Of a stretch of DNA of 40,101 bases, positions 4,111 to 40,101 are shown one piece after another; within the stretch, counting starts at the first letter, position 1, and every line of letters begins with the position of its first letter. The notes beneath the pieces were generated by a model. It was not told the DNA's origin, searched no databases, and worked only from the letters and a program-made list of their open reading frames with translations. The position numbers were made by a program, and so were the translations under genes. Source of the DNA: Desulfuromonadaceae bacterium (GTDB taxonomy: Bacteria > Desulfobacterota > Desulfuromonadia > Desulfuromonadales > JAAYDE01); contig JAAZDE010000021.1 in NCBI GenBank assembly GCA_012512925.1, forward strand, positions 1 to 40,101, given 5' to 3'.

Positions 4111-4147
4111 AAAAAAAGCTTCCGCCCCTGACAGGGGCGAAAGCTTT
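4111..4147 (-). terminator. Intrinsic terminator of the leuA T-box
   Basis: A stem AGCTTTCGCCCCTG / CAGGGGCGGAAGCT (4146-4118) is followed on the minus strand by a run of seven T (4117-4111). It lies 3' of the T-box sequence and about 70 nt before the leuA ATG. This is the expected place for the conditional terminator that competes with the antiterminator. Confidence 0.9.
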
Positions 4148-4360
4148 CAGCTTCGCGGTACCACCCTGATTCCATCCCCAGAAGCGGGGATGCTCGAATT
4201 ACCATTAACGCAGGCTCACGACCAAAGCTAGCGGCACTGGAATACAAGAAAGACACCGTTCACTTCGGCAGCTCCAAGGCGAGTTCGGCGGCACCCTGTA
4301 CCGGCTCACAGCGAACGCCGGCTCTCTGAGACAGGAAGATAGGCCTACTACTCCTCTTCA
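4111..4360 (-). promoter_or_regulatory. T-box leader of leuA, leucine (CUC) specifier
   Basis: The leader has the parts of a T-box riboswitch in order. The AGTA-box-like GGAGTAGTAGG lies near 4340-4350. A Stem I distal region (CAGAGAGCCGG, then GTGAGCCGG) follows. The specifier loop GAA-CUC-G has CUC at 4283-4281. The T-box AGGGTGGTACCGCG lies at 4167-4154, followed by the terminator at 4147-4111. In the known mechanism uncharged tRNA pairs with the specifier and T-box and stops terminator formation. CUC is a leucine codon, matching the downstream leuA. Stem pairings were judged by eye. Confidence 0.92.
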
Positions 4361-4384
4361 ACGCTTTTTAAACCATATTCTAAA

Positions 4385-5292: not shown

Positions 5293-5933
5293 TCCAGATA
5301 TCCGATGATGGTCTCCCCACCGATGGCGCGATCCCCAATGCGTACCGCCGCTCTGGTTCCTTTCGGAAGATAGATGTCGACACGGGAACCGAAGCGGATC
5401 AGGCCGTAACGCATCCCTTTGGTCAAGGCCTCGCCGAGTTGGGGATAGGTGACGATGCGGCGTGCTATCAGACCAGCGATCTGGACAAAGAGCAACCGCT
5501 TGCCGTTCTCCGTTTCCAGAAGGATGCCGGCTTGCTCATTGAGGTCGCTCGCCTTGTCGAGGGAAGCGTTGAGGAATTCACCCTTGCGGTAGAACGTATC
5601 CACGACTTTGCCGGAAAAGGGGACGCGGTTGACGTGGACATTGAATACCGACATGAAGATGCTTATTTTCAGTGTCTCGGCCTTTAGAAGGCGGTCTTCC
5701 CTGACCTCGCCGACGAAAACCACCTTGCCGTCGGCCGGTGAGACCACGGCGTTCTCGTCGACGGGGATGCAGCGCTCCGGGTTGCGGAAAAAATAGGCCG
5801 CAAAAAGCGTCAAGGCCAGCAGCACCAGGGTCAGAAATCCCCAGCCGAGCAGGGCGAAAACGAGGGTGACAAAAGCGAACAGCAGGATAAAGGGATATCC
5901 CTCTTTGGCTATCGGCTGATTGTTGTTGGTCAT
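5289..5933 (-). CDS. psd: Phosphatidylserine decarboxylase proenzyme (short type)
   Basis: Psd decarboxylates phosphatidylserine to phosphatidylethanolamine. The 214-residue protein belongs to the short Psd class. It has two N-terminal membrane segments (about 15-50), the conserved VVSPADGKVVFVGEV region and NVHVNRVPFSG. The C-terminal IRFGSRVDIYLP contains the Gly-Ser pair at which the proenzyme cleaves itself to form the pyruvoyl cofactor. It lies about 50 nt after ilvC and overlaps pssA by 4 nt. Its place in a branched-chain amino acid cluster is a shared gene order rather than a pathway link. Confidence 0.95.
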   Translation of the reverse strand: MTNNNQPIAKEGYPFILLFAFVTLVFALLGWGFLTLVLLALTLFAAYFFRNPERCIPVDENAVVSPADGKVVFVGEVREDRLLKAETLKISIFMSVFNVHVNRVPFSGKVVDTFYRKGEFLNASLDKASDLNEQAGILLETENGKRLLFVQIAGLIARRIVTYPQLGEALTKGMRYGLIRFGSRVDIYLPKGTRAAVRIGDRAIGGETIIGYLE

Positions 5934-12093: not shown

Positions 12094-13426
12094 TCGCCCC
12101 TCCGAAGAAGAGGCGGACCAGATCGTTGTAGAAGGCCAATCCCATCAGCAGCAGCAGCAAGATGAGACCGGCCTGTTGGGCCAACTCGCGGGTGCGCAGG
12201 GACAGCGGCCGGCGGATCAATATCTCACAGAAATTGAAGAAAATATGGCCTCCGTCCAGAACAGGGATCGGCAGCAGGTTGAGAATGCCGAGCTGGATGC
12301 TCAGGAAGGCCAGAATCGACAGGATACTGGTGAAATCGGTCTGGGCGGCATGGCCGGCCATCTGGACGACGGTGATCGGTCCGCCGATGTTTTTGGCCGA
12401 CACCTCGCCGAAAAGCAGTTTCTTGATGAAGAGGAAGGTGAGTTCGATCAGATCCCAGGTTCTGGAGGCTCCTTCCCGGATTGAATCGCCCAGGCCGAAA
12501 CGTTTGGTGACGGTTTCCTGAAGGGGGGCGATGCCGATCAGAAAAAGGGAAGATGAGTCCCGTTCTTCCTTTTCCGCCCAGATGGTGAACTCGATACGTT
12601 CTCCTTCCCTCTCGACCAGATATCGGCCCGGTTTTTCATTCAGATCCTGGACGATCGTCCTGATTTCATACCAGGAATCGATTTTCCGCCCATTGATGGC
12701 CAGAATCAGATCACCGACCTTCATTCCCGCTTTGGCCGCGGCGCGTCCCGGTACCAGGGCGCCGACACGGGCTTCCTGCAGGGGGAGCAGGCCAAGGGAC
12801 TGTAATCCTTCCAGCCCCCCATCCCTGGGGTTTGCCAGGGGGACAGCGGCTTCCTCTCCACCCCGCTGCACGGTAAACCGCAATGGGGCGCCAAGGTGGG
12901 AAAGAACCGCTTTTTCGGCCGATTCCCAGGAAGTCACGTGAATATCGTTGACCGCGGTGATGCAGTCCCCCGTCCGAAAGCCGGCGTCGATGGCCTGGGA
13001 TCCAGCCGCCACATAACCGATGCAGGGGGGCTTTTCAAGAAAAGCCGGCATCGGTACGCCGATCAGGTAAGCCCAAGGGAGGAGCAGAAAGGGGAACAAC
13101 AGGTTCATTGCCGGCCCCGCCAGTACGATGAGGGTCCTTCGCCAGGGAGACTTGGCGGCAAAGGAGCGTTTTTCATCGCCGGGCAGAAGTTCGAGATTTT
13201 CATCCTCCTTTTCCGGATTCTCTCCCAGCATCTGGACGTACCCGCCCAGAGGCACGGCGCAGATCATGTATTCCGTTTCTCCCCATTTTCGCGAAAGCAG
13301 ACGGGGACCGAATCCGAGTGAAAATTTGAGAACTTTTACGTTCATGAATTTGGCGACGCAAAAATGGCCGAGTTCATGAATGAAAATCAACACCCCCAGC
13401 ATGAGGATACCGGCGAGAATGGTCAT
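12086..13426 (-). CDS. rseP: RseP site-2 intramembrane metalloprotease
   Basis: RseP cleaves transmembrane substrates inside the inner membrane; in E. coli this releases sigma-E from its anti-sigma factor and clears signal peptides. The zinc site HELGH is in the first membrane segment (about residues 18-22). The second metal motif NLLPIPVLDGGH lies near 388-399. Two PDZ domains lie between (about 120-190 and 205-280, GMKVGDLILAINGRKI in the second). At 446 residues it has the full two-PDZ architecture. It overlaps dxr by one base (TAATG) and tsaB by 8 bases. Confidence 0.96.
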   Translation of the reverse strand: MTILAGILMLGVLIFIHELGHFCVAKFMNVKVLKFSLGFGPRLLSRKWGETEYMICAVPLGGYVQMLGENPEKEDENLELLPGDEKRSFAAKSPWRRTLIVLAGPAMNLLFPFLLLPWAYLIGVPMPAFLEKPPCIGYVAAGSQAIDAGFRTGDCITAVNDIHVTSWESAEKAVLSHLGAPLRFTVQRGGEEAAVPLANPRDGGLEGLQSLGLLPLQEARVGALVPGRAAAKAGMKVGDLILAINGRKIDSWYEIRTIVQDLNEKPGRYLVEREGERIEFTIWAEKEERDSSSLFLIGIAPLQETVTKRFGLGDSIREGASRTWDLIELTFLFIKKLLFGEVSAKNIGGPITVVQMAGHAAQTDFTSILSILAFLSIQLGILNLLPIPVLDGGHIFFNFCEILIRRPLSLRTRELAQQAGLILLLLLMGLAFYNDLVRLFFGGASG

Positions 13427-14595
13427 TACAAACCCTCCACTTTGGCGGTGCTGGAAATCATGGCGGCGGTTTCCCTTCCCCAGCGGTCCGCTTCGAGAAC
13501 CGCTTCCAGTTTTTGTATGGGGACGGCCTCATGCCGTTCCAGGGTGAGGCGGATGATCGTCGGGATATCCATGAAGGTGATCTCCCCCCGCAGAAAGCAC
13601 TCTACGGCGACTTCGTTGGCGGCATTGAGAACCGCCGGGGCGGTGCCCCCGCGCCGCAGAGCTTCGTAAGCCAAGCCCAGACAGGGGAAACGCCGCGGAT
13701 CCACCTCGAGGAAGGTCAGTTTTCCCATTGCGCAGAGATCAAGAGGTGGCAGGTCGAGTGGAATCCTCTCCGGACAGCAAAGGGCATAGGCGATAGGGGT
13801 CTTCATATCGGGGATCCCCATTTGGGCGATGACTGCCCCGTCGATGTACTCGACCATGGAGTGGACGACGCTTTGGGGGTGAATATGGACATCGATTTTC
13901 TCTGCCGGCAGGTCGAAAAGCCAACGGGCTTCGATGACCTCCAGCCCCTTGTTCATCATGGTGGCGGAATCGATGGTGATCTTTTTCCCCATGTGCCAAT
14001 TGGGATGAACCAGGGCCGCGGCGGGGGTCACTTCACGCATCCTGTCCAGCGGCATTTCCCGGAAGGGTCCCCCCGATGCAGTGAGAATCAGGCGACGGAC
14101 ATCTCCTTTGCGGTGCCCCTGAAGGGACTGGAAAATGGCCGAATGCTCGCTGTCAACGGGCAAAAGATGGACGTTGCGACGCCGCACCCGTTCCATGATC
14201 AGGGGGCCGGCGGCTACCAGGGTTTCCTTGTTGGCCAGGGCCACATCCTTGCCCGCCTCAATGGCGGCCAGGGTGGGAATCAGTCCGGCTGAGCCGACAA
14301 TGGCCGAGATCACCATGTCGGCCTCATCATGGCTGGCACAGGCCACCAACCCCGCTATGCCGAAGAGAATCTCCGTCCCGGTGTCCTTAAGGCGCTCTTT
14401 TAGCCTTGCCGCCCGTTCCTCGTCAGGGACTGCCACCCTTAGGGGCGAAAACCGGCGGACCTGGTCGGCCAGCAGGTCGAGATTGTGATTGCCGGTGAGG
14501 GCCGTCACCCGGAACCGGTCGGAATGGGCGGCGACGATCTCCAGAGCGCTGGAGCCGATAGAACCGGTGCTGCCGAGAATGGCTAAATTCTTCAT
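13426..14595 (-). CDS. dxr: 1-deoxy-D-xylulose 5-phosphate reductoisomerase
   Basis: Dxr converts DXP to 2-C-methyl-D-erythritol 4-phosphate with NADPH, the committed step of the MEP isoprenoid pathway. The N-terminal NADPH motif is [17 protein letters not shown]. The active-site stretch [14 protein letters not shown] carries the acidic metal ligands, and [21 protein letters not shown] is the substrate-binding block. The length of 389 residues is standard. It follows cdsA by 25 nt and shares one base with rseP. The uppS-cdsA-dxr-rseP order is widely conserved in proteobacteria. Confidence 0.97.
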
Positions 14596-27583: not shown

Positions 27584-28963
27584 CTAGGAGTGCTGAAACC
27601 CGTGTTTCTTCATCAGGTCGTACAAAGTGGGGCGACTGACTCCCAACAGCTCCGAGGCCTTTAGAATATTTCCCTGATGCTGTTCCAGGGCCGCCAGGAT
27701 CATCTCTTTGTCAAGGCGGTCTCGGGCTTCCCGGAGAGTCAGGGTGCTCGGGGGTTTTTCGGAATTATTGGCGGCGGATCTGTCTTGACCGGCAAAATCG
27801 AGATCCGCCGGCTCTATGATCGAGGTTTCGGCCATGATCACCGCCCTTTTTACCCGATTTTCCAACTCGCGGACATTCCCCGGCCAGGAGTGGGCCTCCA
27901 ACTGACGAAGGGCGGCGGCACTGAACCTTCTGGCTCTTTTGTTGTGCATTTCGCCGAACCGCCTCAGAAAAAGGTTGGCCAGAAAGATGATATCGTTACC
28001 TCTTTCCCGCAAGGGGGGGAGTTCGATGATGATCACGCCGATGCGGTAGAAAAGATCCTCGCGGAACTTTCCGTCCTTGATGGCTTCCTTGATATTGGTG
28101 TTGGTAGCGGAGATGATCCGGGCATCGACCTCGATATTTTCCCTGCCACCGACCCTCTGGATCACCTTCTCCTGGATGAATCTCAGCACCTTGACCTGGA
28201 GGGAAAGAGGCATTTCTCCGATTTCGTCCAGAAAGAGCGTTCCTCCCTGGGCGGATTCAAATTTTCCCTGGACCCGTCCATATGCGCCGGTAAATGCCCC
28301 TTTTTCATGACCGAAAAGTTCCGATTCCAGAAGGGTTTCAGGTATGGCGCTGCAATTGATGGGGATGAATGGGGCCGATCTGCGGGGGCTGTTGCCATGG
28401 ATGGCGGCGGCCACCATCTCTTTTCCGGTGCCGCTTTCGCCAAGAATCAGTACCGGGACATCGCTGGAAGAGACCTTGCGGATGGTTTTAAATATTTCCA
28501 GCATGCTGGGGGAGTGGCCGAATATTCCTTGCATCTCCTTTCCTTCCGCTGAAAGCGCGGAATGGAGCTGACGATTTTCTTCTTCGATAACGGCAAGATG
28601 AAAGGCTCTGTTAAGAATGATGCGCAGTTCATCCAGATTGACCGGTTTGGTGTAATAATCGTAAGCGCCCATGCGTATGGCCTTCAAGGCGTTTTCCCGC
28701 TCTTCGTGGCCAGTCAGCACAATCACCTTGGTCCAGGGGGCCAGCCGCATAACCTCTTCCAGGCAGCGGAAACCTTCAGTGGAACCATCTTCATCAGGGG
28801 GCAGGCCGAGATCAAGAGTCATGACCTTCGGTTCATGTTCGCGGAAAAGTTCAAGCGCCCTGGCCACGCTATCGGCGGCAAAGACCTTGTACTCTTTGCT
28901 CAGGCCCCATTTGAGCTGTTTTTGTATCTCTTCCTTGTCATCCACAATCAGCAGAACATGCAT
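27584..28963 (-). CDS. prsR: PrsR-type sigma-54-dependent response regulator
   Basis: A 459-residue NtrC-type activator. The receiver domain (1-120) has acidic DD near the N-terminus, the phosphoacceptor in MTLDLGLPP and the switch Lys in YYTKPVN. The AAA+ domain has Walker A GESGTGKE, the sigma-54 contact loop GAFTGA and Walker B GGTLFLDEIGEM. A Fis-type HTH closes the protein (ILKASELLGVSRPTLYDLMKKHGF). Sequence style and the adjacent kinase match PrsR of the exosortase/PEP-CTERM two-component pair. The start MHVLLIVDD has GGAGG upstream; the longer frame extends into the kinase gene in another frame. It overlaps prsK by 26 nt. Confidence 0.93.
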   Translation of the reverse strand: MHVLLIVDDKEEIQKQLKWGLSKEYKVFAADSVARALELFREHEPKVMTLDLGLPPDEDGSTEGFRCLEEVMRLAPWTKVIVLTGHEERENALKAIRMGAYDYYTKPVNLDELRIILNRAFHLAVIEEENRQLHSALSAEGKEMQGIFGHSPSMLEIFKTIRKVSSSDVPVLILGESGTGKEMVAAAIHGNSPRRSAPFIPINCSAIPETLLESELFGHEKGAFTGAYGRVQGKFESAQGGTLFLDEIGEMPLSLQVKVLRFIQEKVIQRVGGRENIEVDARIISATNTNIKEAIKDGKFREDLFYRIGVIIIELPPLRERGNDIIFLANLFLRRFGEMHNKRARRFSAAALRQLEAHSWPGNVRELENRVKRAVIMAETSIIEPADLDFAGQDRSAANNSEKPPSTLTLREARDRLDKEMILAALEQHQGNILKASELLGVSRPTLYDLMKKHGFQHS

Positions 28964-31070
28964 TACCTTTTCCTCCGGATGGCGGCAGAGTTGACCTGTT
29001 GCTTTTAAAGGTGTTTCGATCCGATTGTGAAAGAGGGAGATAGACGCAGAAAACGGAGCCTTTTCCCTCTTCGCTGCTGACCTCGATGCGGCCGCCGTGG
29101 GCCTCGACAATATTTCTGCACTGATAAAGGCCGATGCCAAAGCCCTTTTTTTTGGTGGAATGGAAAGGGCGGAACAAGCACTTGTCGATAAAGTCACGGG
29201 ACATGCCAATGCCCTGATCAGCAACGCGCAGGAAAGCCTCCTTCCCTTGGCCCACCTCGATAGTCACCGGCGCCATTTCCGAACAGGCCTCGATACCGTT
29301 CATGACAAGGTTCAACAATACCTTTTGCAATTCCGCGGTATCTCCTTCCACCATGGCCGACTCCCCGGAGATCTTCACCAGATGGGTATTGAAAGTTTTG
29401 CCGCAGTCTTCGGCAATTTTCATCAGGTCACAGGGCCTTTTAGCCAGGATCTTTTTTTCCTGAAAATCCTTCAGTCTGGCGATAAGGGCCCTCATCCTTC
29501 CCACGCTGCCGGAGAGGGTGGCAAGCAAATCCGCCTGGAATTCGGGATCTCCGATAAAGTCTCTGGCGTTGGTGGTTGTCATGTCGAGGGCGGAAACCAG
29601 ATTTTTCAGATCGTGGATGACGAAAGCGGAAACCTTCCCGATAGCGGCCATTTCCCGTTGTTCCGAGAGTTCCACAATCAGTTTTTGACTCAGCAGTACG
29701 TTGGCCGATTGGCGGGCCAGAACCCTCATCAGATCATAATCCTCGTATGTGGCGATTTCACCAGGATTTATCTGTGGACCAAGAATGACGAAACCCTCCA
29801 GTTTCTCCTTGAAAAGAAGAGGGACAATGTAGGTGACTCCGTGTCGGAAAAGAAAATCCCCATTCTCTTCCAGGATTTCAGGGTTGTCGTCGCCAGCGTT
29901 GAAAACCCAGTCCCTTTTGTCAAGAAACCGAATCAGGGAATTATCGTGGGGGAAAACCGTTCCCAAAGTATCCATTTCCAGAGAGGCCAAACAGGTGTAG
30001 GCGTTTTTTCCTTCTTTCAGTGAAAAAAGAGATGCCGAGTGAACGGCAAAGGTTTTACAGAAAAAGGCGAGAATGGCCGCCCCCAGTTCCTCCAGGCTGT
30101 TTTTGGCGGTTATGGTTTGAGTGAATTCCAGCCACTGGTTCCGATAGTCGTATTTCTGGCGGTAAAAGTTTTTGTGCAAAAAAACCTTTAACCTGCGTTT
30201 TGCCGTTTCCGAAAGCAATACCACGGAAAAGGCAACGCCCGCGAGGAGGGCGACCAGCCCCAAAAAGGTTTTTTGGGGGGAGGCGCCCAGATAGCGCATC
30301 CCTTCTCCTGCCAGTCCCAATCCGAGGAAATAGATGCCGATAATCAGGACAACAACCGACCGCACGGCCATGTCCCTGGAAATATAAAGTCCTGACAGCC
30401 CTCCCCGCCGGAAGAAGGAATAGAAGATCATCCCGCAGCCCAGCAGCAGGGCGGCGCTTTTTTCCGCCATCAGTCCCATGTTCAGCGTCCGGTACAGGAG
30501 TCCCTGACTGTAATAAAGTATAAACATGGCCAGGATGACCCCTGCCCCGATAATTTCGAATTTGACCCGCCACTTTTCCAGCGCCGGTAAAGACAAAAGG
30601 TTTCTTTCCAGGTTGGCGAGGGTGAGGATGAAAAAAAGCAGCAGAGCAAGATAGAAAAAATAGCCGACATTACCAAGAAAGATCAATTTTTCGTGGGGGA
30701 AGTCAGGCGAATAGAAAAAGTTTTCCATCGGGACGAAGATGGCAACAGGTACAAAGAACAGGGAAATGGTTATTGCCCCTCGTTGAAAAATACCAAGCTT
30801 ATGAAATCCTCCTTGTCTTGCAAAGAAAAGGGAATAGGAAAGCCACAGGATCGGGAGAAGGGATTCAGCAATGAGTGTGGCCCTTTTCCAATAGGAAAAA
30901 TGCTGAGGATTTCGCAACACCAGAAAGTCACAGAGTTCAACAGCGGCGCAGCAGATCAGGGCGCCACCCAGAAAAAGAGAACTGAGATAATGTCGCTTTG
31001 CGGCAAAAACATACAGGACCAGAAGGAGAATTGACGTTATAACCGCTATTGGAAGAAAGAGATGAGGCAT
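28938..31070 (-). CDS. prsK: PrsK-type membrane sensor histidine kinase
   Basis: The 710-residue kinase has about eight hydrophobic segments in the first 300 residues, a GAF-like region (about 325-480) and a HisKA/HATPase core. The H-box is AFVIHDLKNLVSALD, the N-box LLNLVMNGIEAC, the G1 box VADQGIGM, and FHSTKKKGFGIGLYQCRNIVEAHGG follows. The architecture and sequence match PrsK, the kinase of exosortase (PEP-CTERM) systems, which pairs with PrsR. It is 5' of prsR with a 26-nt overlap. No exosortase, PEP-CTERM protein or polysaccharide gene is in the window. The upstream 385 bp contains a comM fragment and no strong promoter by eye. Confidence 0.93.
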   Translation of the reverse strand: MPHLFLPIAVITSILLLVLYVFAAKRHYLSSLFLGGALICCAAVELCDFLVLRNPQHFSYWKRATLIAESLLPILWLSYSLFFARQGGFHKLGIFQRGAITISLFFVPVAIFVPMENFFYSPDFPHEKLIFLGNVGYFFYLALLLFFILTLANLERNLLSLPALEKWRVKFEIIGAGVILAMFILYYSQGLLYRTLNMGLMAEKSAALLLGCGMIFYSFFRRGGLSGLYISRDMAVRSVVVLIIGIYFLGLGLAGEGMRYLGASPQKTFLGLVALLAGVAFSVVLLSETAKRRLKVFLHKNFYRQKYDYRNQWLEFTQTITAKNSLEELGAAILAFFCKTFAVHSASLFSLKEGKNAYTCLASLEMDTLGTVFPHDNSLIRFLDKRDWVFNAGDDNPEILEENGDFLFRHGVTYIVPLLFKEKLEGFVILGPQINPGEIATYEDYDLMRVLARQSANVLLSQKLIVELSEQREMAAIGKVSAFVIHDLKNLVSALDMTTTNARDFIGDPEFQADLLATLSGSVGRMRALIARLKDFQEKKILAKRPCDLMKIAEDCGKTFNTHLVKISGESAMVEGDTAELQKVLLNLVMNGIEACSEMAPVTIEVGQGKEAFLRVADQGIGMSRDFIDKCLFRPFHSTKKKGFGIGLYQCRNIVEAHGGRIEVSSEEGKGSVFCVYLPLSQSDRNTFKSNRSTLPPSGGKGNACSADCG

Positions 31071-31218
31071 AGGGCAAACATCTTTTGACTTTAAGGGGGA
31101 AGTTTCTCTATCAAAGATAAAGAAAAACGGCCTGATTTCAATTTTTAAAAGAAAATTAATTGAAAATAAAGTGACGTGTGAAAAATTCTTTCGCGCAAGG
31201 GAAACATTTGAGCAGTCG

Positions 31219-31290
31219 TGGATCGCCTCGGCGAGATGGTCCTGAAAGGTGTTTTCCTCTCCGCCGGGATCGGCGACGCGACCATTGAAA
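31219..31290 (-). pseudogene. Decayed fragment of the comM 3' end
   Basis: Bases 31219-31276 match 39941-39998, the 3' part of the comM gene at the right end of the window. By eye 50 of 58 positions are identical without gaps, and the first 21 are identical. On the minus strand the fragment reads VADPGGEENTFQDHLAEAIH against [20 protein letters not shown] in comM. It has the same orientation as comM, lies in the 385-bp gap between prsK and the TVP38 gene, and has no start or continuing frame. It is most likely a duplicated or rearranged remnant. The rest of the 31071-31455 gap shows nothing recognisable. Confidence 0.8.
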
Positions 31291-31455: not shown

Positions 31456-32157
31456 ATGAAAAACCGGAGCACGAAAATCCTTCTTGTATTGGCGCTGGTG
31501 GTGGCAGTCGGGTTGTTTTTCGCCTTTGACCTCGAGCGGTTCATGACTCTGGATTTTTTGAAAGACCAACAGGAAAGTTTTCAGAGTTTTTACGCCGACC
31601 ACCGCATGGCGACACTGGGGGCCTTTTTCCTCCTATATGTACTTGTCACGGCCCTTTCCCTTCCTGGTGCTGTAGTCATGACAATTGCGGCCGGCCTTCT
31701 CTTCGGCTTGTGGACAGGGGTGATCCTGGTGTCCTTCGCCAGCACCATCGGTGCCACCCTCGCCTTTCTGGTCAGCCGGTTTCTCCTGCGGAACTGGGTC
31801 CAGACCAAATTCCGCAACCGTCTTCAGGCCGTCAACAATGGAATTGAGACCGAGGGGGTTTTCTACCTTTTTACCCTGCGTCTTGTCCCGATCTTTCCTT
31901 TTTTTGTAATCAATCTGGTTATGGGCCTCACTCCCATGCGCACCCTCACATTCTACTGGGTAAGTCAGCTTGGAATGCTGCCCGGGACCGCGGTTTACGT
32001 CAATGCCGGTACTCAACTCGGCCGGATCGAGAGTCTTTCCGGAATTCTTTCCCCCACGCTGCTGTTTTCCTTTGCCCTCCTCGGGATTTTTCCCCTCATT
32101 GTCCGCAAAGGGGTCGATATCATGAAAAAACGCAAAAAATTCCATCGGGAGGATTAA
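31456..32157 (+). CDS. TVP38/TMEM64 (VTT/DedA-like) membrane protein
   Basis: The 233-residue integral membrane protein has an N-terminal anchor segment. The VTT-domain hallmarks are LSLPGAVVMTIAAGLLFG with the re-entrant-loop-type Pro-Gly, IGATLAFLVSRFLLR, and FTLRLVPIFPFFVINLVMGLT. A basic tail (MKKRKKFHRED) ends it. DedA/TVP38 members are linked to lipid scrambling or undecaprenyl-phosphate flipping, but this member's substrate is unknown. GGGAGG precedes the ATG. It is a single plus-strand gene, convergent with sixA 64 nt downstream. Confidence 0.92.
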   Translation: MKNRSTKILLVLALVVAVGLFFAFDLERFMTLDFLKDQQESFQSFYADHRMATLGAFFLLYVLVTALSLPGAVVMTIAAGLLFGLWTGVILVSFASTIGATLAFLVSRFLLRNWVQTKFRNRLQAVNNGIETEGVFYLFTLRLVPIFPFFVINLVMGLTPMRTLTFYWVSQLGMLPGTAVYVNAGTQLGRIESLSGILSPTLLFSFALLGIFPLIVRKGVDIMKKRKKFHRED

Positions 32158-32221
32158 AGAATGCAAGAACACTCCTTGAGATCGATGATCCCGGTCAAAA
32201 ACCCGCGTTAGATCAAGTTGG

Positions 32222-32725
32222 TCATTTCATTTTATCTGGTCCTTTTGGGGAATCCTCAAAAAGGACTGTTCCTGAATGGGCCTGAATGTGCTGCCAGGAT
32301 TCCACGGGCAACCGGAGGCTGACCAAACCGCAGGTGACGATTTCGTTGATTTCCTGGGATGCCAGGAAGTTGGCCAGTGCCGTAAGTTCCGGATTGTGTC
32401 CTATCAAAAGCACATCGCTGAACCTGTCATCAATTTTTCTTATAACATTCAATAATGTATCCACATCCCTCTGGTAAAGGAGCGGTTCGTAAATGACGCT
32501 TTGAACCGAGCCGCCCAGTTCCGGGATGACCCTTTCAGAGGTTTGCCGGGCTCGGACTGCAGGGCTGGACAGAATCAGCTGCGGCAGACTATGGCGTCTG
32601 GTGAGGCGGCGGGCCATGACCGGGGCATTCTCCCGCCCTCTTTTTTTAAGTGGACGGTCGAAATCCTTCAGGCCTGGGTCTTTCCAACTGGATTTGGCGT
32701 GACGCATCAGGGTCAGGTTCTTCAT
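32222..32725 (-). CDS. sixA: SixA-type phosphohistidine phosphatase
   Basis: The 167-residue protein of the histidine phosphatase superfamily has the catalytic RHA motif (LTLMRHAKSSW, about 4-14), SSPAVRARQTSE and the second His in LLIGHNPELTALANFL. SixA in E. coli removes phosphate from His on phosphotransfer proteins. The ATG has a strong GGAGGGA site. The gene directly follows a broken parA, and the old parA frame runs into its 5' end. The location after ppk1 and CHAD suggests co-transcription with the polyphosphate genes; a role there is inference. Confidence 0.9.
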   Translation of the reverse strand: MKNLTLMRHAKSSWKDPGLKDFDRPLKKRGRENAPVMARRLTRRHSLPQLILSSPAVRARQTSERVIPELGGSVQSVIYEPLLYQRDVDTLLNVIRKIDDRFSDVLLIGHNPELTALANFLASQEINEIVTCGLVSLRLPVESWQHIQAHSGTVLFEDSPKGPDKMK

Positions 32726-32747
32726 GTTCCCTCCAGGTTTTTTCCCC

Positions 32748-33041
32748 TACATTCAACCAAAGATCCAAATGACGACAGGAAAAGTCAGCGGGCAGTAGAT
32801 CAAGGTTTTCAAAATCGGTTCCCTTGACCAGACCTGTTAGATCGGGTTTGCCGCGAAACAGGTTTTTGCCTCCTCCTTTAATTTTCGGTTTGACGCGAAA
32901 ATAGAAAGTCGCCGCCACTTGCGGGTCGAGATCCCATACCAAGGTGGTCATCCCTTCGCTTGAGGCAATTCATGGGGGGTTGACGGCTGCGGCGGTTTTG
33001 CCGACACCGCTCTTGATGTTGCAGGTAGCAAGGATTTTCAT
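32748..33041 (-). pseudogene. Broken ParA-family ATPase gene
   Basis: The remnant starts with ATG 33041, which overlaps the CHAD stop as ATGA. It reads MKILATCNIKSGVGKTAAAVN with an intact deviant Walker A (KSGVGKT), then hits an in-frame TGA at 32972-32970 (codon 24). The frame continues with TTLVWDLDPQVAATFYF (the Walker A' region) and KGTDFENLDLLPADFSCRHLDLW. All similarity then ends after about 98 codons, just before the sixA ribosome binding site. A full ParA would be about 250-300 residues, so Walker B and the C-terminal half are lost. No frameshift is needed; one nonsense mutation and a 3' deletion explain the state. Confidence 0.9.
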
Positions 33042-34627
33042 TTTGCGGTTTCTTTCTGAAAAACCTTCTGCCGAAAAAGGGACCGGCAAGTCCGGCGATT
33101 TGCCAAAGCCGAAAAATCGGTAAAAAGGGAACCAATTTTTTTTCGGAAAGCCAGTTGCTGACAGTGCACATGGTCGATGAGAACCTCTATGGCCATGAAA
33201 ACTGAATCGGGAAGGTCGCTTCGCTCCTGTTGCATTTCCTGGCGGAACTGATGTAGGGCGCTGGTTTGAATCGTGATGTCCTGGAAGCCGCCCAGGTTGT
33301 CCTGGAATTCTTTCAGTGTTTTGATCAATTTGCGTATTACATCGGCAGGATAAAGGCTTTGGAAGAATTCCATCAGATAGCGGAGCTTTTTGCAGGCGAT
33401 GCGCAACTCGTGGAGAGCTTCAGGGGGCGATGAATCATCAATGACGGCGCCTTTTTTCCAGACCTGCCGGCAGGTTTTCCAGATGCGCCGCGAGGCGATC
33501 TTCCCGATCGACTGCTCGGCCTTGTGCGGCCAGATCGTTGATTCCATCGGCATTTCCAGAAATTCACGCCACTCCCTGAGGAGGCGTTGACATCGTTTCG
33601 AAGCGAGTTGCCGGGCGAGAACTTTTTGTGCTTTTTTTTGACGCAGGGTCAGAAAACCATGCAGTGGTTCCAGATCGTTCCTCATCGGTTCAGGAAGGGA
33701 CATTTGGTAGGTTGGCCATTTTAGCAGATAGACATCGAGATCGCGGGTCGGGCCGGTGATCTCTCCCAACCACTTGAATTCCGGACGGAACCTCTCAAGA
33801 ACCTGGTCCGGGAGCACTCCTTTGATCTGGTTGACAAGGCTGCGGGTCCTGCGCAGCGCCACCCTGAAATCGTGCAGAAATTCCGAATCGGTGCCCCTTC
33901 TCGCACCGTCCAGATTGCACTCCATGATGGTCAGCAACTGTTCCAAGATCAACTTAATGGCGGAGCCTGATGCCATGGAGGCTACCAAGTTCAGATCAAG
34001 CTTGCCGGAATAATCCTGCGATTTTTTACCGAGGCAGCGGAGGGCTTCTTCAAGTTCCGCTTCTGCAGTTTGGCATGACAGGGTTTTTTCAATCAGTTTG
34101 CGGGCATGATCATAATGCTTGCGATAACCATTCAGAGGCTCCAGGCGGATTCTGTGAGGCAATGAAAATCGACCACCCTCATTGAGGATGGCCGACTCAA
34201 CGCAAATCCGCAGCACGGATTTTCCATTCTTGTTGAGAAGTTTTCCTTGATAGGCGACGACGTCAACGGATGCTACCGGCAGCAAAGCGCGCATCTCAAT
34301 GATGGAGGCAATTTTTTCCCGCAACGGCCCTCTGGGCAAATCGCGAGCGAATCGGGGGGTGCTCATGGATATCTGCCCCAGTGTCATGTTATCCGCCAGA
34401 CGCCGCCACCAGGTGCGAATCTGGTGTGAACGTCTTTCTTCCATCAATGAACTGCCGTGGCGATGAAGACGCCAATCGAATGTGTCGAAATAGGTGCGGC
34501 AAGATTTTTCCGGAGCCTTGGTCTTCACCTTACCGAGGGCTTCCAGCAGGGTGAATGAGTCCTGGGGAGTGTGATTTTCGGGGAGAAGATAGTGGCAAGA
34601 TCCACGGGTCATTGGCTTTATCATCAC
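33038..34627 (-). CDS. CYTH-like/CHAD domain protein (polyphosphate-binding type)
   Basis: The 529-residue protein has an N-terminal CYTH-like region (about 1-200; TYFDTFDWRLHRHGSSLMEE) and a C-terminal CHAD domain. The two CHAD helical repeats each carry the conserved His and basic residues: LHDFRVALRRTRSL (about 252-265) and ALHELRIACKKLRYLMEFF (about 405-423). CHAD domains bind polyphosphate and localise to polyphosphate granules in studied bacteria. It is coupled at both ends by ATGA overlaps, to ppk1 upstream and to the broken parA downstream. An alternative start is Met6 (MTRGSC). A granule-associated role is strongly suggested by context. Confidence 0.9.
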   Translation of the reverse strand: MMIKPMTRGSCHYLLPENHTPQDSFTLLEALGKVKTKAPEKSCRTYFDTFDWRLHRHGSSLMEERRSHQIRTWWRRLADNMTLGQISMSTPRFARDLPRGPLREKIASIIEMRALLPVASVDVVAYQGKLLNKNGKSVLRICVESAILNEGGRFSLPHRIRLEPLNGYRKHYDHARKLIEKTLSCQTAEAELEEALRCLGKKSQDYSGKLDLNLVASMASGSAIKLILEQLLTIMECNLDGARRGTDSEFLHDFRVALRRTRSLVNQIKGVLPDQVLERFRPEFKWLGEITGPTRDLDVYLLKWPTYQMSLPEPMRNDLEPLHGFLTLRQKKAQKVLARQLASKRCQRLLREWREFLEMPMESTIWPHKAEQSIGKIASRRIWKTCRQVWKKGAVIDDSSPPEALHELRIACKKLRYLMEFFQSLYPADVIRKLIKTLKEFQDNLGGFQDITIQTSALHQFRQEMQQERSDLPDSVFMAIEVLIDHVHCQQLAFRKKIGSLFTDFSALANRRTCRSLFRQKVFQKETAK

Positions 34628-36828
34628 CGCAGGTTTCGTTTGCCGAAATCCTTGGATTTTCGTTTGCGCAGCCGTGTGGCTTCACGATTGCGTTTTTCCG
34701 CCCATTCAATTTGAATTTCCTGGCTTCCTCGGGATTCCTCCCCCTTGCCGGGGGTTCGCTGGATGTAGCTTCCCTCCGGTTGCATGTCCCAGGCACTGCG
34801 GCGGTCGTTCAATTGAATATCGAGGAGTTTTTTTAAATCGCGCTGCAGTTCCGGAGTCTCCACCGGCGCCACGACTTCCACACGGTTTTCCAGATTGCGG
34901 CGCATGGCATCCGCTGACCCGATTAAATATTCGGGATTTCCGCCGTTGGCAAAATAGTAGAGGCGGGCATGTTCGAGAAACCGGCCGACGATGGAGACGA
35001 CACGAATATTTTCCGAAAGACCGGGCAGACCGGGGCGCAGCCTGCAACTGTCGCGGACCAGCAGGTCCACCTTGACACCGGCCTGGGAGGCGCGATAAAG
35101 AGCCCGGGTTATTTCCGGATCCTCAAGGGCGTTCATCTTGAAGATGATCTGGCCGGGTTTGTCAGGGGAATGCCGTTCTATCTCATTGCGGATCTTGTGG
35201 AGGAGCGCCTTTTTCAGATGCTTGGGGGCGGGGAGCAGCTTATGGTAACTCCGTTTTGGGGTGTAGCCGGTAGTCAGGTAGTTGAACAGTTCGGTCACAT
35301 CCTGGCCGATCTCTTTGTCGCAAATGAACAGCCCCAGGTCGCTGTAGAGCCGGGCCGTGACGGGGTGGTAGTTGCCGGTCCCGATATGGACATAACGGCG
35401 CAGGCCATTGAAATCCTGGCGAATGACCAGAATGACCTTGCAGTGGGTTTTCAGGCCAACCACCCCGTAGGTCACATGGATTCCTGCCTCATCCATGCGG
35501 TTGGCCAGCCGAATGTTGGCTTCTTCATCGAACCGGGCTTTCAGTTCCACCACCACGGCTACCTGTTTGCCGTTCTGGGCCGCCCGGATCAGTGTATCTA
35601 TAATGGGGCTTTCCGGGGAAGTGCGGTAAAGAGTCATCTTGATTCCCCGCACTTTGGGATCTGCGGCGGCTTCGGAAAGGAACCGCTCCACCGAAGAAGA
35701 GAAGGATTCATAGGGGTGTTGCAGCAGTATCTCCCTGGCTTCACGGATGATGTGAAAGATGCTCCTGTTATTCTGAAGGGCGGGATGATCAATGGGGCGG
35801 TGAACGGTATCCTTCAGTTTGGGCAGATCAAGATTGGCGATCTGCCACAGGTCGCGCATCCCCATTATCCCTTTCAGTTCGAAAACGTCGGCCGCTTCGT
35901 TTAGGCCGAGCTCGGCCGCCAGGCGGCCACGATGGGTGGGGTCCATGCCAGGCTGAACCTGGAGGCGGACAATCGGGGCGAATTTGCGATCCCGCAGGGT
36001 CGTTTCGATCAGCGACAGGAGGTCGTCGGCGTGTTCCTCATTGCGGCTGGTGTTGGCATTGCGGGTGACCCTGAACAGTTCGCAGCTGACAATTTCCATT
36101 TCCGGGAAGAGCATGTCGAGATTCTGGATCATGACCTCTTCAAGGAGAACAAACCGGTTTTTCTTGCCGATGCGGACAAATCGGGGCGCGCCGGCGCTGA
36201 TCGGAACCTTGACCCGGGCCAGGGAGGTTGAGAGGTCCTGAGGGTAGCGCAACGTCACCAGCAAATTGAGTGAAAGATTGGAGATAAAGGGAAATGGATG
36301 GGCCGGATCGATCGACTGGGGTGTGACCAGAGGGAAAATATTGTTGTAATACTCCTTGCGCAGGAAGCGGCGATCCGTGTCGCTCAACTCGGGGTATTCG
36401 AGGATTTCGATGCCGGCTTCGCGAAGATCCCGCCACAGAATGTCGAGAAGTAGATCTCGCTCCTGCTGGTGTTTGAGGACAAAAGCGTAACAGTCCTCGA
36501 TCTGCTCGTTGGGAGTTCGCCCATCGACGGTTTCTTCAACGACACCCGCGCCAAGTTGCTGCTTCAAACCGCCGATCCGCTTCATGAAAAACTCGTCCAG
36601 GTTGGAGCCGGCAATGGCGGCGAACTTGACCCGCGCCAGAAGGGGTATGCGTGGGTCTCGGGCTTCATGCAGCACCCGGCTGTTGAATTCCAGCCAACTC
36701 AATTCGCGGTTCAGGTAAAATTCTGAACCAAAAAGATCGGGGGTTTTTGGCTCACTCGTTTTAAGAACTGTTTTTCTTAAGTTTTTTGAAGCCTGGTTAT
36801 TTGGAATGACTGATTTGTTTTTACTCAT
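34624..36828 (-). CDS. ppk1: Polyphosphate kinase 1
   Basis: PPK1 reversibly polymerises the gamma-phosphate of ATP to polyphosphate. The N-domain shows YLNRELSWLEFNSRVLHEA, and the head domain follows. The C1 domain has ARFDEEANIRLANRMDEAG and the autophosphorylated His in VGLKTHCKVILV. The C2 domain has RFLEHARLYYFANGG. The start at MSKNKSVIPNN gives 734 residues, somewhat longer than the common ~690, with a charged N-tail and a weak ribosome binding site. The longer frame upstream runs into the divergent promoter region of ppx. The stop overlaps the CHAD start (ATGA). Confidence 0.95.
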   Translation of the reverse strand: MSKNKSVIPNNQASKNLRKTVLKTSEPKTPDLFGSEFYLNRELSWLEFNSRVLHEARDPRIPLLARVKFAAIAGSNLDEFFMKRIGGLKQQLGAGVVEETVDGRTPNEQIEDCYAFVLKHQQERDLLLDILWRDLREAGIEILEYPELSDTDRRFLRKEYYNNIFPLVTPQSIDPAHPFPFISNLSLNLLVTLRYPQDLSTSLARVKVPISAGAPRFVRIGKKNRFVLLEEVMIQNLDMLFPEMEIVSCELFRVTRNANTSRNEEHADDLLSLIETTLRDRKFAPIVRLQVQPGMDPTHRGRLAAELGLNEAADVFELKGIMGMRDLWQIANLDLPKLKDTVHRPIDHPALQNNRSIFHIIREAREILLQHPYESFSSSVERFLSEAAADPKVRGIKMTLYRTSPESPIIDTLIRAAQNGKQVAVVVELKARFDEEANIRLANRMDEAGIHVTYGVVGLKTHCKVILVIRQDFNGLRRYVHIGTGNYHPVTARLYSDLGLFICDKEIGQDVTELFNYLTTGYTPKRSYHKLLPAPKHLKKALLHKIRNEIERHSPDKPGQIIFKMNALEDPEITRALYRASQAGVKVDLLVRDSCRLRPGLPGLSENIRVVSIVGRFLEHARLYYFANGGNPEYLIGSADAMRRNLENRVEVVAPVETPELQRDLKKLLDIQLNDRRSAWDMQPEGSYIQRTPGKGEESRGSQEIQIEWAEKRNREATRLRKRKSKDFGKRNLR

Positions 36829-37057
36829 CGGAAGGCTTTTCGGCAAAGTCGAATAAATGGAAAAATTCTCTTTAACTGTTACCGTTGCTCGGTTAGGAAA
36901 TTGCTGGAATCGGGTTAGAGCCACCAAAAACAGCAGAAATTCTGATAAAAATTCTGAGGGGAACGCCACCTATTAACCAAACCCAAATAATATTTTGGTA
37001 AAAGTATAGCAAAAAGGATGAGATCCTGATTATTCCTGCATGAATAAGGAAATAGTG

Positions 37058-38686
37058 ATGAATGATAAACGGCTGGCGGCGATCGACATCGGAACCAACT
37101 CAATCCGCTGTATCGTGATTGAAGTCGATGCCAAAAAGGGATTCCGGATTCTCGACGACGAAAAAGCCAACGTTCGGTTGGGAGAGGGGTTGACTGTCTC
37201 TGGTCGCATCAGCCCTGCCGCCTGGGAACGGGCGCAGGATGCCCTGTTGCGCATGCGCAAAATCGCTGAAGGGTGGGGAGTTGATTACATTGAGGCAGTG
37301 GCGACGAGTGCGGTGCGCAAGGCCGCCGATCGCGAGGAATTCATCGCTGCGATGAATTCCCGGACCGGCATCGACATCCGCGTCATCAATGGCAGGGAAG
37401 AAGCGGAACTGGCCACTCTCAGCGCGCTACACCATTTTGATATGCATAACATCCGTTATGGACTGATCGACATCGGCGGCGGCAGCGTCGAAGTGGTCAT
37501 CGCGACGGGAAGTCACATTGAAAAAATTCACTCTCTGGATCTGGGAGCGGTCTTTCTGACTGAATATTTTCTGAGCGGCGATCCCATTAGCAGCAAGGAA
37601 AAAAACCGTCTCCATAAACATCTCCGCAAGGCCATCAGCAAAAATTTGGGAGGAGAGGATTTCGGTCTTCAATGTCTGATCGGCTCCGGGGGACCTGTGA
37701 CCAATATCGGCGGCATGATCATGGCGGGCCGCGGGGAACAGTACGACAGTGTTCATCGTTATGATGTCCTCCACTCTGAAATCGTCCATCTCCTGGCTAT
37801 GCTGGAAAGAAAAACCCTCAAGGAGCGCCAGGCCGTCGACGGGCTGAGTCCGGACCGGGCCGACATCATCGTGGCCGGTGTCGCTGCAGTGGATGAACTG
37901 ATGCGTTTTTTCGGAGCCAATCTGCTGAAAATAAATACCGGAGGATTACGGGAGGGGCTGATCATCCGAAGCCTGAAAAACCATGGATTGTGGCCCTTGG
38001 AGGACAAAAAGCGGGACTGGCTCTCGTCGGTACTCAGTTTTGCCCGTTCCTGTCATGCCGATGAGGCCCATGGCGAACAAGTGCGACGGTTGTCCCTGGC
38101 CATTTTCGACGGTATTCCGGCAGACAAATCTTGGGACCTTCGGGCCCGCCGCATACTGGAAGCGGCTGCCTTGCTGCACGATGTCGGCTATTTCGTCAGT
38201 TATAACAAGCATCACATGCATTCTTCCCATCTCATTCGCCACGCCGAATTGTTTGATTTCACTCCGCGGGAGACAGAAATCATCGCCAATCTGGCGCGCT
38301 ATCACCGCAAATCCCTTCCCAAGAAAAAACATCAGGATTTTTACCGCCTTAGCCCTGAAGATCGTGAATTGGTTGGCAAATTGGGAGGAATCCTGCGCCT
38401 GGCCGACGGCCTGGATCGCCGGCGCAGCAACGGCGTCAAAAAATTGAGTTGCTTCACCAGTGACGGGAAAGTCGTTATCGAGGTGGCTGGGGATGAGGAT
38501 CTGTCCGTGGAGCTTTTCGGCGCCCGTGCCAAGTCCGACCTGTTCAAAGTTGCCTTCGGACAGGAGGTGATTGTGGAAGACATCTCCAGTTGGGAAAAAC
38601 CGCCAACCGACCACGGTATTCCGCCTTTGCCCCGAATGGAGAAATGCGTCGACCTCCTTGCCTGGAAAGGTCAGGGTCGGAAGTGA
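37058..38686 (+). CDS. Ppx/GppA phosphatase with C-terminal HD domain
   Basis: The 542-residue protein has an ASKHA exopolyphosphatase/pppGpp-phosphatase core (about 1-310): AAIDIGTNSIRCIVIEV, the Glu-rich NGREEAELATL, GLIDIGGGSVEVVIA and IGSGGPVTNIGGM. A C-terminal HD domain follows (about 330-480): LLHDVGYFVSYNKHHMHSSHLIRH and LRLADGLDRR. This two-part layout is known in longer PPX proteins. The ATG at 37058 is chosen because AAGGAA lies 6 nt upstream; the ATG at 37040 has no site. It is divergent from ppk1 with about 230 bp between the starts, consistent with polyphosphate breakdown next to synthesis. Confidence 0.92.
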   Translation: MNDKRLAAIDIGTNSIRCIVIEVDAKKGFRILDDEKANVRLGEGLTVSGRISPAAWERAQDALLRMRKIAEGWGVDYIEAVATSAVRKAADREEFIAAMNSRTGIDIRVINGREEAELATLSALHHFDMHNIRYGLIDIGGGSVEVVIATGSHIEKIHSLDLGAVFLTEYFLSGDPISSKEKNRLHKHLRKAISKNLGGEDFGLQCLIGSGGPVTNIGGMIMAGRGEQYDSVHRYDVLHSEIVHLLAMLERKTLKERQAVDGLSPDRADIIVAGVAAVDELMRFFGANLLKINTGGLREGLIIRSLKNHGLWPLEDKKRDWLSSVLSFARSCHADEAHGEQVRRLSLAIFDGIPADKSWDLRARRILEAAALLHDVGYFVSYNKHHMHSSHLIRHAELFDFTPRETEIIANLARYHRKSLPKKKHQDFYRLSPEDRELVGKLGGILRLADGLDRRRSNGVKKLSCFTSDGKVVIEVAGDEDLSVELFGARAKSDLFKVAFGQEVIVEDISSWEKPPTDHGIPPLPRMEKCVDLLAWKGQGRK

Positions 38687-38716
38687 TGGCCTGGCGCCTG
38701 ACCTTTGACCTTCCGC

Positions 38717-39559
38717 TTAAAAAATCTCCGGGATAAACTTCCGGCCCTCCAGGGAAGCACGGTCGTCATAGGCATTGTCCAGAACCCGTTCGCCGAGCTT
38801 GGTTTTTTTATGGTCCGGTTTTTCGTAAGGGATCAGGCTCAACAGATGGGAAATGCAATTCAGCCGGCCACGCTTTTGGTCATTGAAGGGAACAATATAC
38901 CAGGGGGCCTCCTTGATATCGCTGGCCGTCAGCATGGCGTCCCTGGCCTTGGAATAGTCGTACCAGCGATGGTAGGATTCAATGTCCAGAGGGCTCAGTT
39001 TCCAGATCTTCCGGGGGTCGTCAACCCGTGAGCGGAAGCGTTTCTCCTGCTCCTCCATGTTGATTTCCAGCCAATATTTGATGAGTTGAACCCCGGAATC
39101 GACCAACATCCGCTCAAAAAGCGGTACGACCTGCAAAAAATGGATGTATTCCTTTTCCGTGCAGAATCCCATGACGCGTTCCACTCCGGCGCGGTTGTAC
39201 CAGCTGCGGTCGAAAAGAATGATCTCGCCGGCGGAGGGGAAATGTTGGATATACCGCTGCATGTACACCTGGGTCTTTTCCTTTTCAGAGGGGGCCGGCA
39301 ACGCCACCACGCGGAAGACCCGGGGGCTGACCCGCTCCGTGATGGCCTTGATGACGCCCCCCTTGCCGGCGGCATCGCGACCTTCAAACACCACAACAAC
39401 ACGATGCCCTGACTTCTTGAGCCATTCCTGAAGGGACACCAGATCTCCGTGGAGACGCTTCAACTGCTTCTCATATTCTTTTCCTTTCAACTTTTTCCCC
39501 TGTTTCCCGACCGCCTCATTGATCCTTGAGCCGGATGATTGTTTTTCTTTTTTGCCCAT
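38717..39559 (-). CDS. ppk2: Polyphosphate kinase 2 (PPK2) family protein
   Basis: PPK2 enzymes use polyphosphate to phosphorylate nucleotides, mainly ADP or GDP for class I. The 280-residue protein has Walker A FEGRDAAGKGGVIKAI (about 58-73), the following lid/basic residues and Walker B ILFDRSWYNRAGVERVMGF. RSRVDDPRKIWKLSPLD and ESYHRWYDYSKARDAML are further PPK2 blocks. The length suits single-domain PPK2. The start MGKKEKQSSG has GAAGGAGA 7 nt upstream; the longer frame up to 39865 has no such support. It is convergent with ppx 30 nt away. The nucleotide preference cannot be read with certainty. Confidence 0.93.
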   Translation of the reverse strand: MGKKEKQSSGSRINEAVGKQGKKLKGKEYEKQLKRLHGDLVSLQEWLKKSGHRVVVVFEGRDAAGKGGVIKAITERVSPRVFRVVALPAPSEKEKTQVYMQRYIQHFPSAGEIILFDRSWYNRAGVERVMGFCTEKEYIHFLQVVPLFERMLVDSGVQLIKYWLEINMEEQEKRFRSRVDDPRKIWKLSPLDIESYHRWYDYSKARDAMLTASDIKEAPWYIVPFNDQKRGRLNCISHLLSLIPYEKPDHKKTKLGERVLDNAYDDRASLEGRKFIPEIF

Positions 39560-39844
39560 GTACGGATCTCCTTCAAAAAAGGTTGTGGTCAAAAGGGATG
39601 GGTCGAGAAAACTATACCATCTTTGAGCAGGTTTGATGGCTGAGTCATTGCTCCAACCACGGTGCATTTTCGACATCGGTCTTGCGACCAGGAATCTGCT
39701 TGGCGTCCCGAGCATTGGCCCGGCGGGGTTCCTTGACGACGGAAAAAAGCCGGGAGACCACATGTTTTTTTGGTGGGGTCGGACTGAATCAACCCACAGT
39801 GAGCAATCTTCGCGGAACAAGACCCAAACCCAAACGCACTGAAC
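39560..39844. other. Gap between comM and ppk2
   Basis: About 285 bp without a supported gene. A TATAGT on the minus strand near 39615 could be a -10 box for ppk2, but no good -35 is at the right distance. A 6-bp stem CCCGGC/GCCGGG with a long loop lies around 39719-39755. Nothing else is seen. Confidence 0.4.
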
Positions 39845-39909: not shown

Positions 39910-40101
39910 TCAGGTCGTCTTTCGGTCCAAACTCCGGTACTGGATCGCCTCGGCGAGATGGGGCTGAAGAATGTTTTCCTCTCCGGCCAGATCGGCGATG
40001 GTCCGCGCCACCTTGAGAATGCGGGTGTAGCTGCGGGCGGAGAGGGCCAGGCGGTCGGTGACCAGTTCCAGGAGTCGCCTCCCCTCTTCATCCAGGCGGC
40101 A
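39910..40101 (-). CDS. comM: ComM / YifB Mg-chelatase-like AAA protein, C-terminal end (partial)
   Basis: Only the last 63 residues are in the window; the gene enters from the right edge. The frame reads [39 protein letters not shown] and then [19 protein letters not shown] before TGA 39912-39910. This is the highly conserved C-terminal domain of ComM/YifB, a hexameric helicase that helps branch migration during natural transformation in studied species. A strong terminator follows. A decayed copy of this very segment lies at 31219-31290. Confidence 0.92.

What the first reader, a model, noticed from the sequence alone, without database searches (positions are those of the whole stretch)
31219..31290. 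Displaced, decayed copy of the comM 3' end 8.7 kb away from comM
58 bp next to prsK match the comM 3' end at about 50/58 positions, same orientation, with the protein frame still readable (GEEN..Q.HLAEAI). The segment between the two copies holds TVP38 and the whole polyphosphate cluster. comM is a known integration site for genomic islands in other bacteria (for example Acinetobacter). This may mark a duplication, an inserted block, or a target used by an element that left.
Basis: partly seen in the sequence, partly recalled or inferred. Interest (0 to 1): 0.55.

Follow-up and report, generated by a model that had tools for sequence, protein, structure and literature searches.

The report
Decayed fragment of comM's 3' end
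A short dead copy of the tail of the DNA-uptake gene comM lies beside prsK; it is probably a worn scar from mobile elements that repeatedly break into comM, and in related bacteria such elements seem to carry and swap the gene's tail.

Summary
In detail: 31219-31276 (minus strand) matches the comM 3' end (39941-39998) at 50 of 58 positions, same orientation, far beyond chance. The fragment lacks comM's last nine or so codons, its stop and any attachment arm, and shows no sign of protein constraint: it is a dead scar. No examined relative has comM beside prsK or the polyphosphate cluster. comM in this genome appears split by a large-serine-recombinase element at a known hotspot (contig C45). 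In the same order, extra comM 3' ends lie downstream of comM on the same strand in G049 (eight in all), G035 and G051; G007 and G040 hold an extra one on another contig. In G049 six of seven readable copies group with another family's comM. G021 and G035, one genus, share comM up to the recombinase core (142/150 identical bases before it) but not after it (103/150), so comM tails are swapped there. G035 also has intact comM, 9.2 kb, then a displaced tail, with no recombinase of this family between: the window's layout. Tail turnover is therefore my best reading (0.45). A plain rearrangement (0.35) is not excluded: the window's comM end is native and the cluster between is shared with its genus. 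The fragment is minor; tail swapping is the lead.

The parts
31219..31276 (-). Decayed copy of comM codons ~494-513 (G001 numbering), 50/58 identical to the window's own comM; gapped extension to ~31288
39910..40101 (-). 3' end of the comM gene (63 codons and stop), running off the contig end; groups with the same-genus comM
   Evidence: 90% to G001; 98/90 with G001; 96/93
39941..39998 (-). Part of comM that the decayed copy matches
28938..31070 (-). prsK (PEP-CTERM system histidine kinase)
   Evidence: NCBIfam TIGR02916, 509.6 bits against a cut-off of 300
31071..31155 (-). Leader of prsK, weakly alignable to G001 (61% over 242 columns that run into prsK); the alignment stops before the comM fragment
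31456..39559 (.). Block between the two comM pieces: TVP38, sixA, remains of a ParA-like gene, CHAD, ppk1, ppx, ppk2. sixA-ppk2 is collinear with G001 contig C87; that contig ends just past sixA, and TVP38 has no match in G001 at E <= 1e-20
39645..39764 (-). Short remnant resembling IS110-family transposase, between ppk2 and comM
   Evidence: listed annotated IS110 transposases at E 6e-4; no family hit

Best explanation
The fragment is a non-functional, worn comM tail left by turnover at the comM integration hotspot. In this order, elements with a large serine recombinase enter comM at a conserved AAMNP motif; comM 3' ends are displaced downstream or arrive with elements, and later lose their flanks and decay. 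Here an older tail came to lie beyond the TVP38-polyphosphate block, beside prsK, and only about 20 codons of it remain. Shown: the duplicate, its orientation, its truncation, the split of comM on C45 up to the missing piece, and the recurrence of displaced comM tails in relatives. Inferred: that this fragment arose in that way, and how the block came to lie between.
For: Match far beyond chance; differences 2/4/2 over codon positions (corrected by hand). Own comM is joined to a recombinase gene at the site used in G049, G050, G007 and G018 (pairwise 51-78% identical over the parts held). Four split genomes searched with the comM 3' part: G049 eight copies, G007 two, G050 one, G018 none. G049: same strand, six of eight behind the same arm. 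G035: intact comM, then 9.2 kb without a recombinase of this family, then a comM 3' end on the same strand behind an arm like that of G050; this is the layout of the window. G051: intact comM, a displaced 3' end ~27 kb downstream and a decayed fragment of codons 464-522 at 58% identity, comparable to the window's. G007: a truncated tail fused to recombinase coding sequence. G049: one decayed copy (40% identity, five stops).
Against: The fragment has no core, arm or recombinase remnant beside it. The window's comM end is native, and the fragment is closer to own comM than to any other, so no foreign tail is involved here. sixA-ppk2 is a cluster shared with G001, not obvious cargo. The join of C45 and C88 is inferred: ~290 bp of comM are missing from the assembly. 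Extra tails were not sought at equal sensitivity in most genomes with an intact comM, so no base rate is known. One of the four split genomes searched has a single tail and one has none.
Confidence: 0.45

Rival explanations
1. A plain chromosomal rearrangement, unrelated to the elements: recombination with homology to comM on one side placed the block between comM and prsK and left the old comM end behind, now decayed.
For: In G001 the three neighbourhoods are apart: comM is followed by a convergent wzc-like gene, ppk2 has an unrelated ORF upstream and prsK a divergent ORF about 0.9 kb upstream. comM or the block beside prsK: 0 of 27 other genomes with prsK over the cut-off (flanks at most 1.5 kb, some cut by contig ends) and 0 of 13 prsK loci with up to 10 kb flanks, one of them G001 again. 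comM beside ppk2: 0 of 7 other genomes with a ppk2 match at E <= 1e-60. Both comM pieces look native.
Against: It needs a separate cause for a pattern that already recurs at this locus in relatives. The fragment lacks comM's stop, which a plain displaced end should keep.
Confidence: 0.35
2. Tandem duplication of the comM end plus block, followed by deletion of most of one copy.
For: Gives the same layout; both copies look native.
Against: One copy only of ppk1, ppk2 and TVP38 was found in the own genome at the thresholds used.
Confidence: 0.1
3. Displaced end of a departed island whose integrase targets the very 3' end of comM.
For: A perfect run of 21 bp lies at one end of the 58 bp.
Against: The similarity does not reach the comM stop, no integrase was seen nearby, and no phage or plasmid record matches the spacer.
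Confidence: 0.04
4. Chance resemblance or a separate conserved gene.
For: None.
Against: E 7.7e-13 in the genome, no shuffle near the score, no counterpart beside prsK elsewhere.
Confidence: 0.01

Closest known systems
Dehalococcoides ssrA genomic islands (PMC3146451, passages read)
   Same: Tandem islands bounded by repeats of the target gene's 3' end; CcrB-like serine recombinases; islands without their own integration module
   Different: Those repeats are 20 bp; the comM copies in G049 are ~470 bp of coding sequence. The window's fragment is 58 bp without an arm
Large serine recombinases that target magnesium chelatase/ATP-dependent protease genes (PMC10083194, passages read)
   Same: Same target gene family, said there to be targeted by 12.4% of predicted site-specific integrases; own comM on C45 is such a case
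   Different: The passages read do not mention element-borne or swapped comM tails; the rest of the text and the supplements were not read
Tn6022 (Tn7-like) and Tsy elements in comM (PMC10293859, passages read)
   Same: Insert in comM and leave its 5' and 3' parts on either side
   Different: They use TnsF and a Walker B region target; the elements here carry a serine recombinase and cut further downstream
Pseudogene fragments at rearrangement junctions (recalled, no call)
   Same: Partial, unconstrained copy in the same orientation beside a moved block
   Different: Here the locus is also an integration hotspot, so the cause is open

Membership tests
Large serine recombinase element in comM (contig C45 of this genome) | Serine recombinase gene abutting a truncated comM | tested here: met
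   27 (Zn_ribbon_recom E 0.001, 19.9 bits, below the 25.3 cut-off); 51 (XisF profile E 2.7e-10, below its curated cut-off); 71 (72% to the G050 recombinase over 243 aa). Only the C-terminal half is on the contig
Large serine recombinase element in comM (contig C45 of this genome) | Both junctions with a shared core | tested here: inconclusive
   5' junction seen; the 3' junction is missing from the assembly. Both junctions seen in G049, G050 and G007
Attachment-site duplicate (window fragment) | Core and element arm next to the gene fragment | tested here: not met
   no 10-base piece of the C45 arm in the window; the fragment lies ~130 codons past the core
Attachment-site duplicate (window fragment) | Recombinase inside the bounded block | tested here: not met
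   none among the ORFs read between 31456 and 39559 (by reading, no profile search). The G035 counterpart also lacks one of this family
Pseudogene fragment | Truncated, with no codon-position bias of changes | tested here: met
   (only 8 changes)

The most novel reading that the evidence does not exclude
In this order, serine-recombinase elements move comM 3' ends of ~470 bp between families. A tail joined at the core keeps the reading frame, so an incoming unit can rebuild a chimeric, apparently intact comM and push the old tail downstream. comM would thus be broken and healed repeatedly while islands pile up, and the window fragment would be a worn-out tail from such turnover.
Probability: 0.35. 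Interest if true: 0.7.

Novelty: new member of a known kind. Interest (0 to 1): 0.4.

Why it matters
In itself the fragment is a minor fossil. It leads to comM, a helicase of natural transformation, as a place where elements not only insert but appear to exchange the gene's tail. If elements do heal comM as they enter, they would be switching a host's DNA-uptake function off and on, which bears on the open question, raised in PMC11472951 (passages), why comM is targeted at all.

Tried and rejected
Chance: rejected. A known RNA in the spacer: no Rfam match at gathering scores (the only match in the window is a T-box elsewhere). Spacer in a plasmid or phage record: no match at E <= 1e-5. comM-prsK adjacency as the shared order: not seen in the relatives examined. 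G001's downstream neighbour of comM (wzc) as the lost neighbour: only a 39% paralogue in the own genome. G001's ORF upstream of ppk2: no match in the own genome. comM 3' ends in IMG/VR contigs: six pattern matches, none a relative. IS110 remnant: not confirmed by Pfam, NCBIfam or PDB sequences, only by weak tblastn. A possible extension of the fragment to comM's last codons was seen by eye only and is not claimed.

Results against or short of my reading: the pair G031/G040 has the largest drop in identity after the core of all 435 pairs of 30 intact comM, but its DNA shows no sharp break there (116/150 before, 114/150 after), so only G021/G035 supports a swap at the core. The displaced tail of G035 does not group with G021, so it is not shown to be the native tail. 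The drop at the core in G021/G035 could also be ordinary homologous recombination that happened to end at a conserved motif.

Not run: extra comM tails in all genomes at the sensitivity (cap on the genome search reached). (E <= 1e-50) is too strict to serve: it shows an extra copy in 1 (G040) of 41 genomes with a full or nearly full comM and missed those of G035 and G051. The 15 loci came from DNA hits of the window fragment: 6 are comM itself or its split part, 2 are displaced tails, 7 hold no comM. That is not an unbiased sample. The trees leave out the decayed G049 copy and 11 of the 41 full or nearly full comM, which had not been fetched.

Literature: one search found no paper with all of 'Mg chelatase', 'large serine recombinase' and 'attB'. 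In some searches the term comM also matched words such as 'common', so those lists are of little use. Searches listed nothing on comM tails carried by elements. Passages of four papers were read; none was read whole. This is not a claim that it is unpublished.

The element-turnover reading rose from 0.3 to 0.45, the plain rearrangement fell from 0.5 to 0.35, tandem duplication fell from 0.12 to 0.1 and the 3'-end-integrase reading from 0.05 to 0.04; the novel case rose from 0.2 to 0.35, its interest if true from 0.65 to 0.7 and the overall interest from 0.3 to 0.4.

Full report
What was checked. The window is the whole of contig C88 (40101 bases) of a 213-contig assembly, G000. comM runs off its right end, so only the last 63 codons are present. 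The fragment is real: 31219-31276 on the minus strand matches 39941-39998 at 50 of 58 positions. It is the only other strong match in the genome (E 7.7e-13, next best 0.03). With gaps the match reaches about 31288, scoring 86 against at most 49 in 1000 dinucleotide shuffles.

What the fragment is. It corresponds to about codons 494-513 of the 523-codon comM of the same-genus genome G001. It has neither the gene's stop nor anything further upstream. Of its 8 differences from own comM, 2, 4 and 2 fall on codon positions 1, 2 and 3 (frame corrected by hand), so there is no sign that a protein is preserved. At the 7 of 58 positions where own comM and G001's comM differ, it agrees with own comM at 4, with G001 at 1 and with neither at 2.

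Where it lies. On one side is prsK, whose leader can be aligned weakly with that of G001 to about 31155. On the other is TVP38, which has no match in G001 at E <= 1e-20, and then sixA-CHAD-ppk1-ppx-ppk2, collinear with G001 contig C87 from about 32282 to 39579. C87 ends just past sixA, so the TVP38 side cannot be compared there. Between ppk2 and comM is a short stretch resembling IS110 transposases (not confirmed). In G001, comM is followed by a convergent wzc-like gene, ppk2 has an unrelated ORF upstream and prsK a divergent ORF about 0.9 kb upstream. The wzc has only a 39% paralogue in G000; the ORF has no match there.

Other relatives. In 58 genomes including G000, prsK is over the family cut-off in 28; none of the 27 others has comM or the block beside it within the flanks held (at most 1.5 kb). 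None of 13 prsK loci from named genomes, with up to 10 kb flanks, does either. One of the 13, a Zodletone metagenome contig, equals G001's contig in length and match position; several others are named Geobacter, Geobacteraceae or Desulfuromonadaceae. Seven other genomes have a ppk2 match at E <= 1e-60, none beside comM within 1.5 kb. DNA searches of the loci then held found no copy of the fragment beside another prsK.

comM in this genome. The 5' part is on contig C45 and ends at the AAMNP motif, followed by a stop codon and the convergent 3' end of a recombinase gene. The product matches recombinase profiles only weakly but is 72% identical over 243 residues to the recombinase in comM of G050. 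About 290 bp of comM are not in the assembly, so the join is inferred. Of 58 genomes, 41 have a full or nearly full comM match, 12 only partial ones and 5 none at E <= 1e-50. Among the 12, G000, G049, G050, G007 and G018 have the recombinase at the same site. G006 and G012 have inserts of about 17 and 28 kb elsewhere in comM. Several of the rest stop at contig ends.

Displaced comM tails elsewhere. Four split genomes were searched with the comM 3' part: G049 has eight, G007 two, G050 one and G018 none. In G049, a single-contig genome, they lie on one strand over 149 kb. The comM 5' part and the only recombinase of this family in the 250 kb read are 86 kb beyond. Six of the eight follow the same arm, the inverse of the arm at the 5' junction. 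In a tree of 42 rows, six of the seven readable copies group with G035 (100/100), while the outermost groups with its own family (100/89). The extra copy of G040 groups with G056 of another family (99/90). The window's comM end groups with G001 (98/90); a second tree of 44 rows agrees.

Tail swapping. G021 and G035, of one genus, have nearly the same comM up to the core (protein 336/351) but not after it (115/156); this is the second largest drop of 435 pairs. At DNA level identity is 142/150 before the core and 103/150 after. G035's tail is the one that groups with the six G049 copies. Downstream of its intact comM, G035 has 9.2 kb without a recombinase of this family and then a displaced tail on the same strand, behind an arm like G050's. 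G051 has an intact comM, a displaced tail about 27 kb downstream and a decayed fragment of codons 464-522. The largest drop, G031/G040, shows no sharp break, and G035's displaced tail does not group with G021, so the history is only partly readable.

Which explanation. G035 and G051 show the window's layout in better condition, so a worn tail from turnover at comM is my best reading (0.45). A plain rearrangement stays close (0.35), because here the arm and core are missing, the comM end is native and the cluster between is shared with G001. Tandem duplication with deletion (0.1), a 3'-end integrase site (0.04) and chance (0.01) are unlikely.

Known background. Magnesium-chelatase/protease genes are a favoured target of large serine recombinases (PMC10083194, passages). 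Tn6022 and Tsy insert into comM (PMC10293859, passages). comM is often inactivated by mobile elements in Acinetobacter baumannii (PMC11472951, passages). Tandem islands with repeated target-gene ends and CcrB-like recombinases are known at ssrA in Dehalococcoides (PMC3146451, passages). The fragment is a new instance of a known kind; the tail swapping may be more.

Noticed in passing
L157-L169 (G049:C1:3762000-4012000): Array of eight comM 3' ends on one strand; six share an attachment arm, six of seven readable ones group with another family's comM. HipAB-like genes sit beside one examined 3' end (profile search on L158), with related flanking DNA at three others.
   Followed up: partly
L081 and L086 (comM of G021 and G035): Two intact comM of one genus, nearly identical up to the recombinase core and divergent right after it.
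   Followed up: partly
L173 (G035:C1), 3331-3804 and 12970-14505: Intact comM and, 9.2 kb downstream on the same strand, a displaced comM 3' end behind an attachment arm.
   Followed up: partly
L177 (G051:C12), 2716-3189 and 5432-5638: Displaced comM 3' end and a decayed comM fragment on the same strand, downstream of the intact comM.
   Followed up: partly
L032 (G000:C45:1-1761): Own comM is cut at the AAMNP motif by the 3' end of a large serine recombinase gene; C45 ends inside that gene.
   Followed up: partly
L110 (G040:C86:4438-4917): Extra comM 3' part of foreign affinity, 3.7 kb from a serine recombinase N-terminus, besides an intact comM on another contig.
   Followed up: partly
L112 (G006:C1) and L113-L114 (G012:C41): comM split by ~17 kb and ~28 kb inserts at other positions; the G006 insert holds genes that look Tn7-like by eye (no profile search).
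   Followed up: no
32726-33171: ParA-like gene of the polyphosphate cluster: a 254-aa frame in G001, truncated here (about 450 bp missing at ~32730).
   Followed up: no
31456-32157: TVP38 stands alone here, while in many relatives the matching frame is over 700 aa, probably a fusion.
   Followed up: no
39645-39764: IS110-like transposase remnant between ppk2 and comM.
   Followed up: partly
4130-4370: T-box leader (Rfam RF00230, 125 bits) upstream of a gene that reads, by eye, as a 2-isopropylmalate or citramalate synthase.
   Followed up: no
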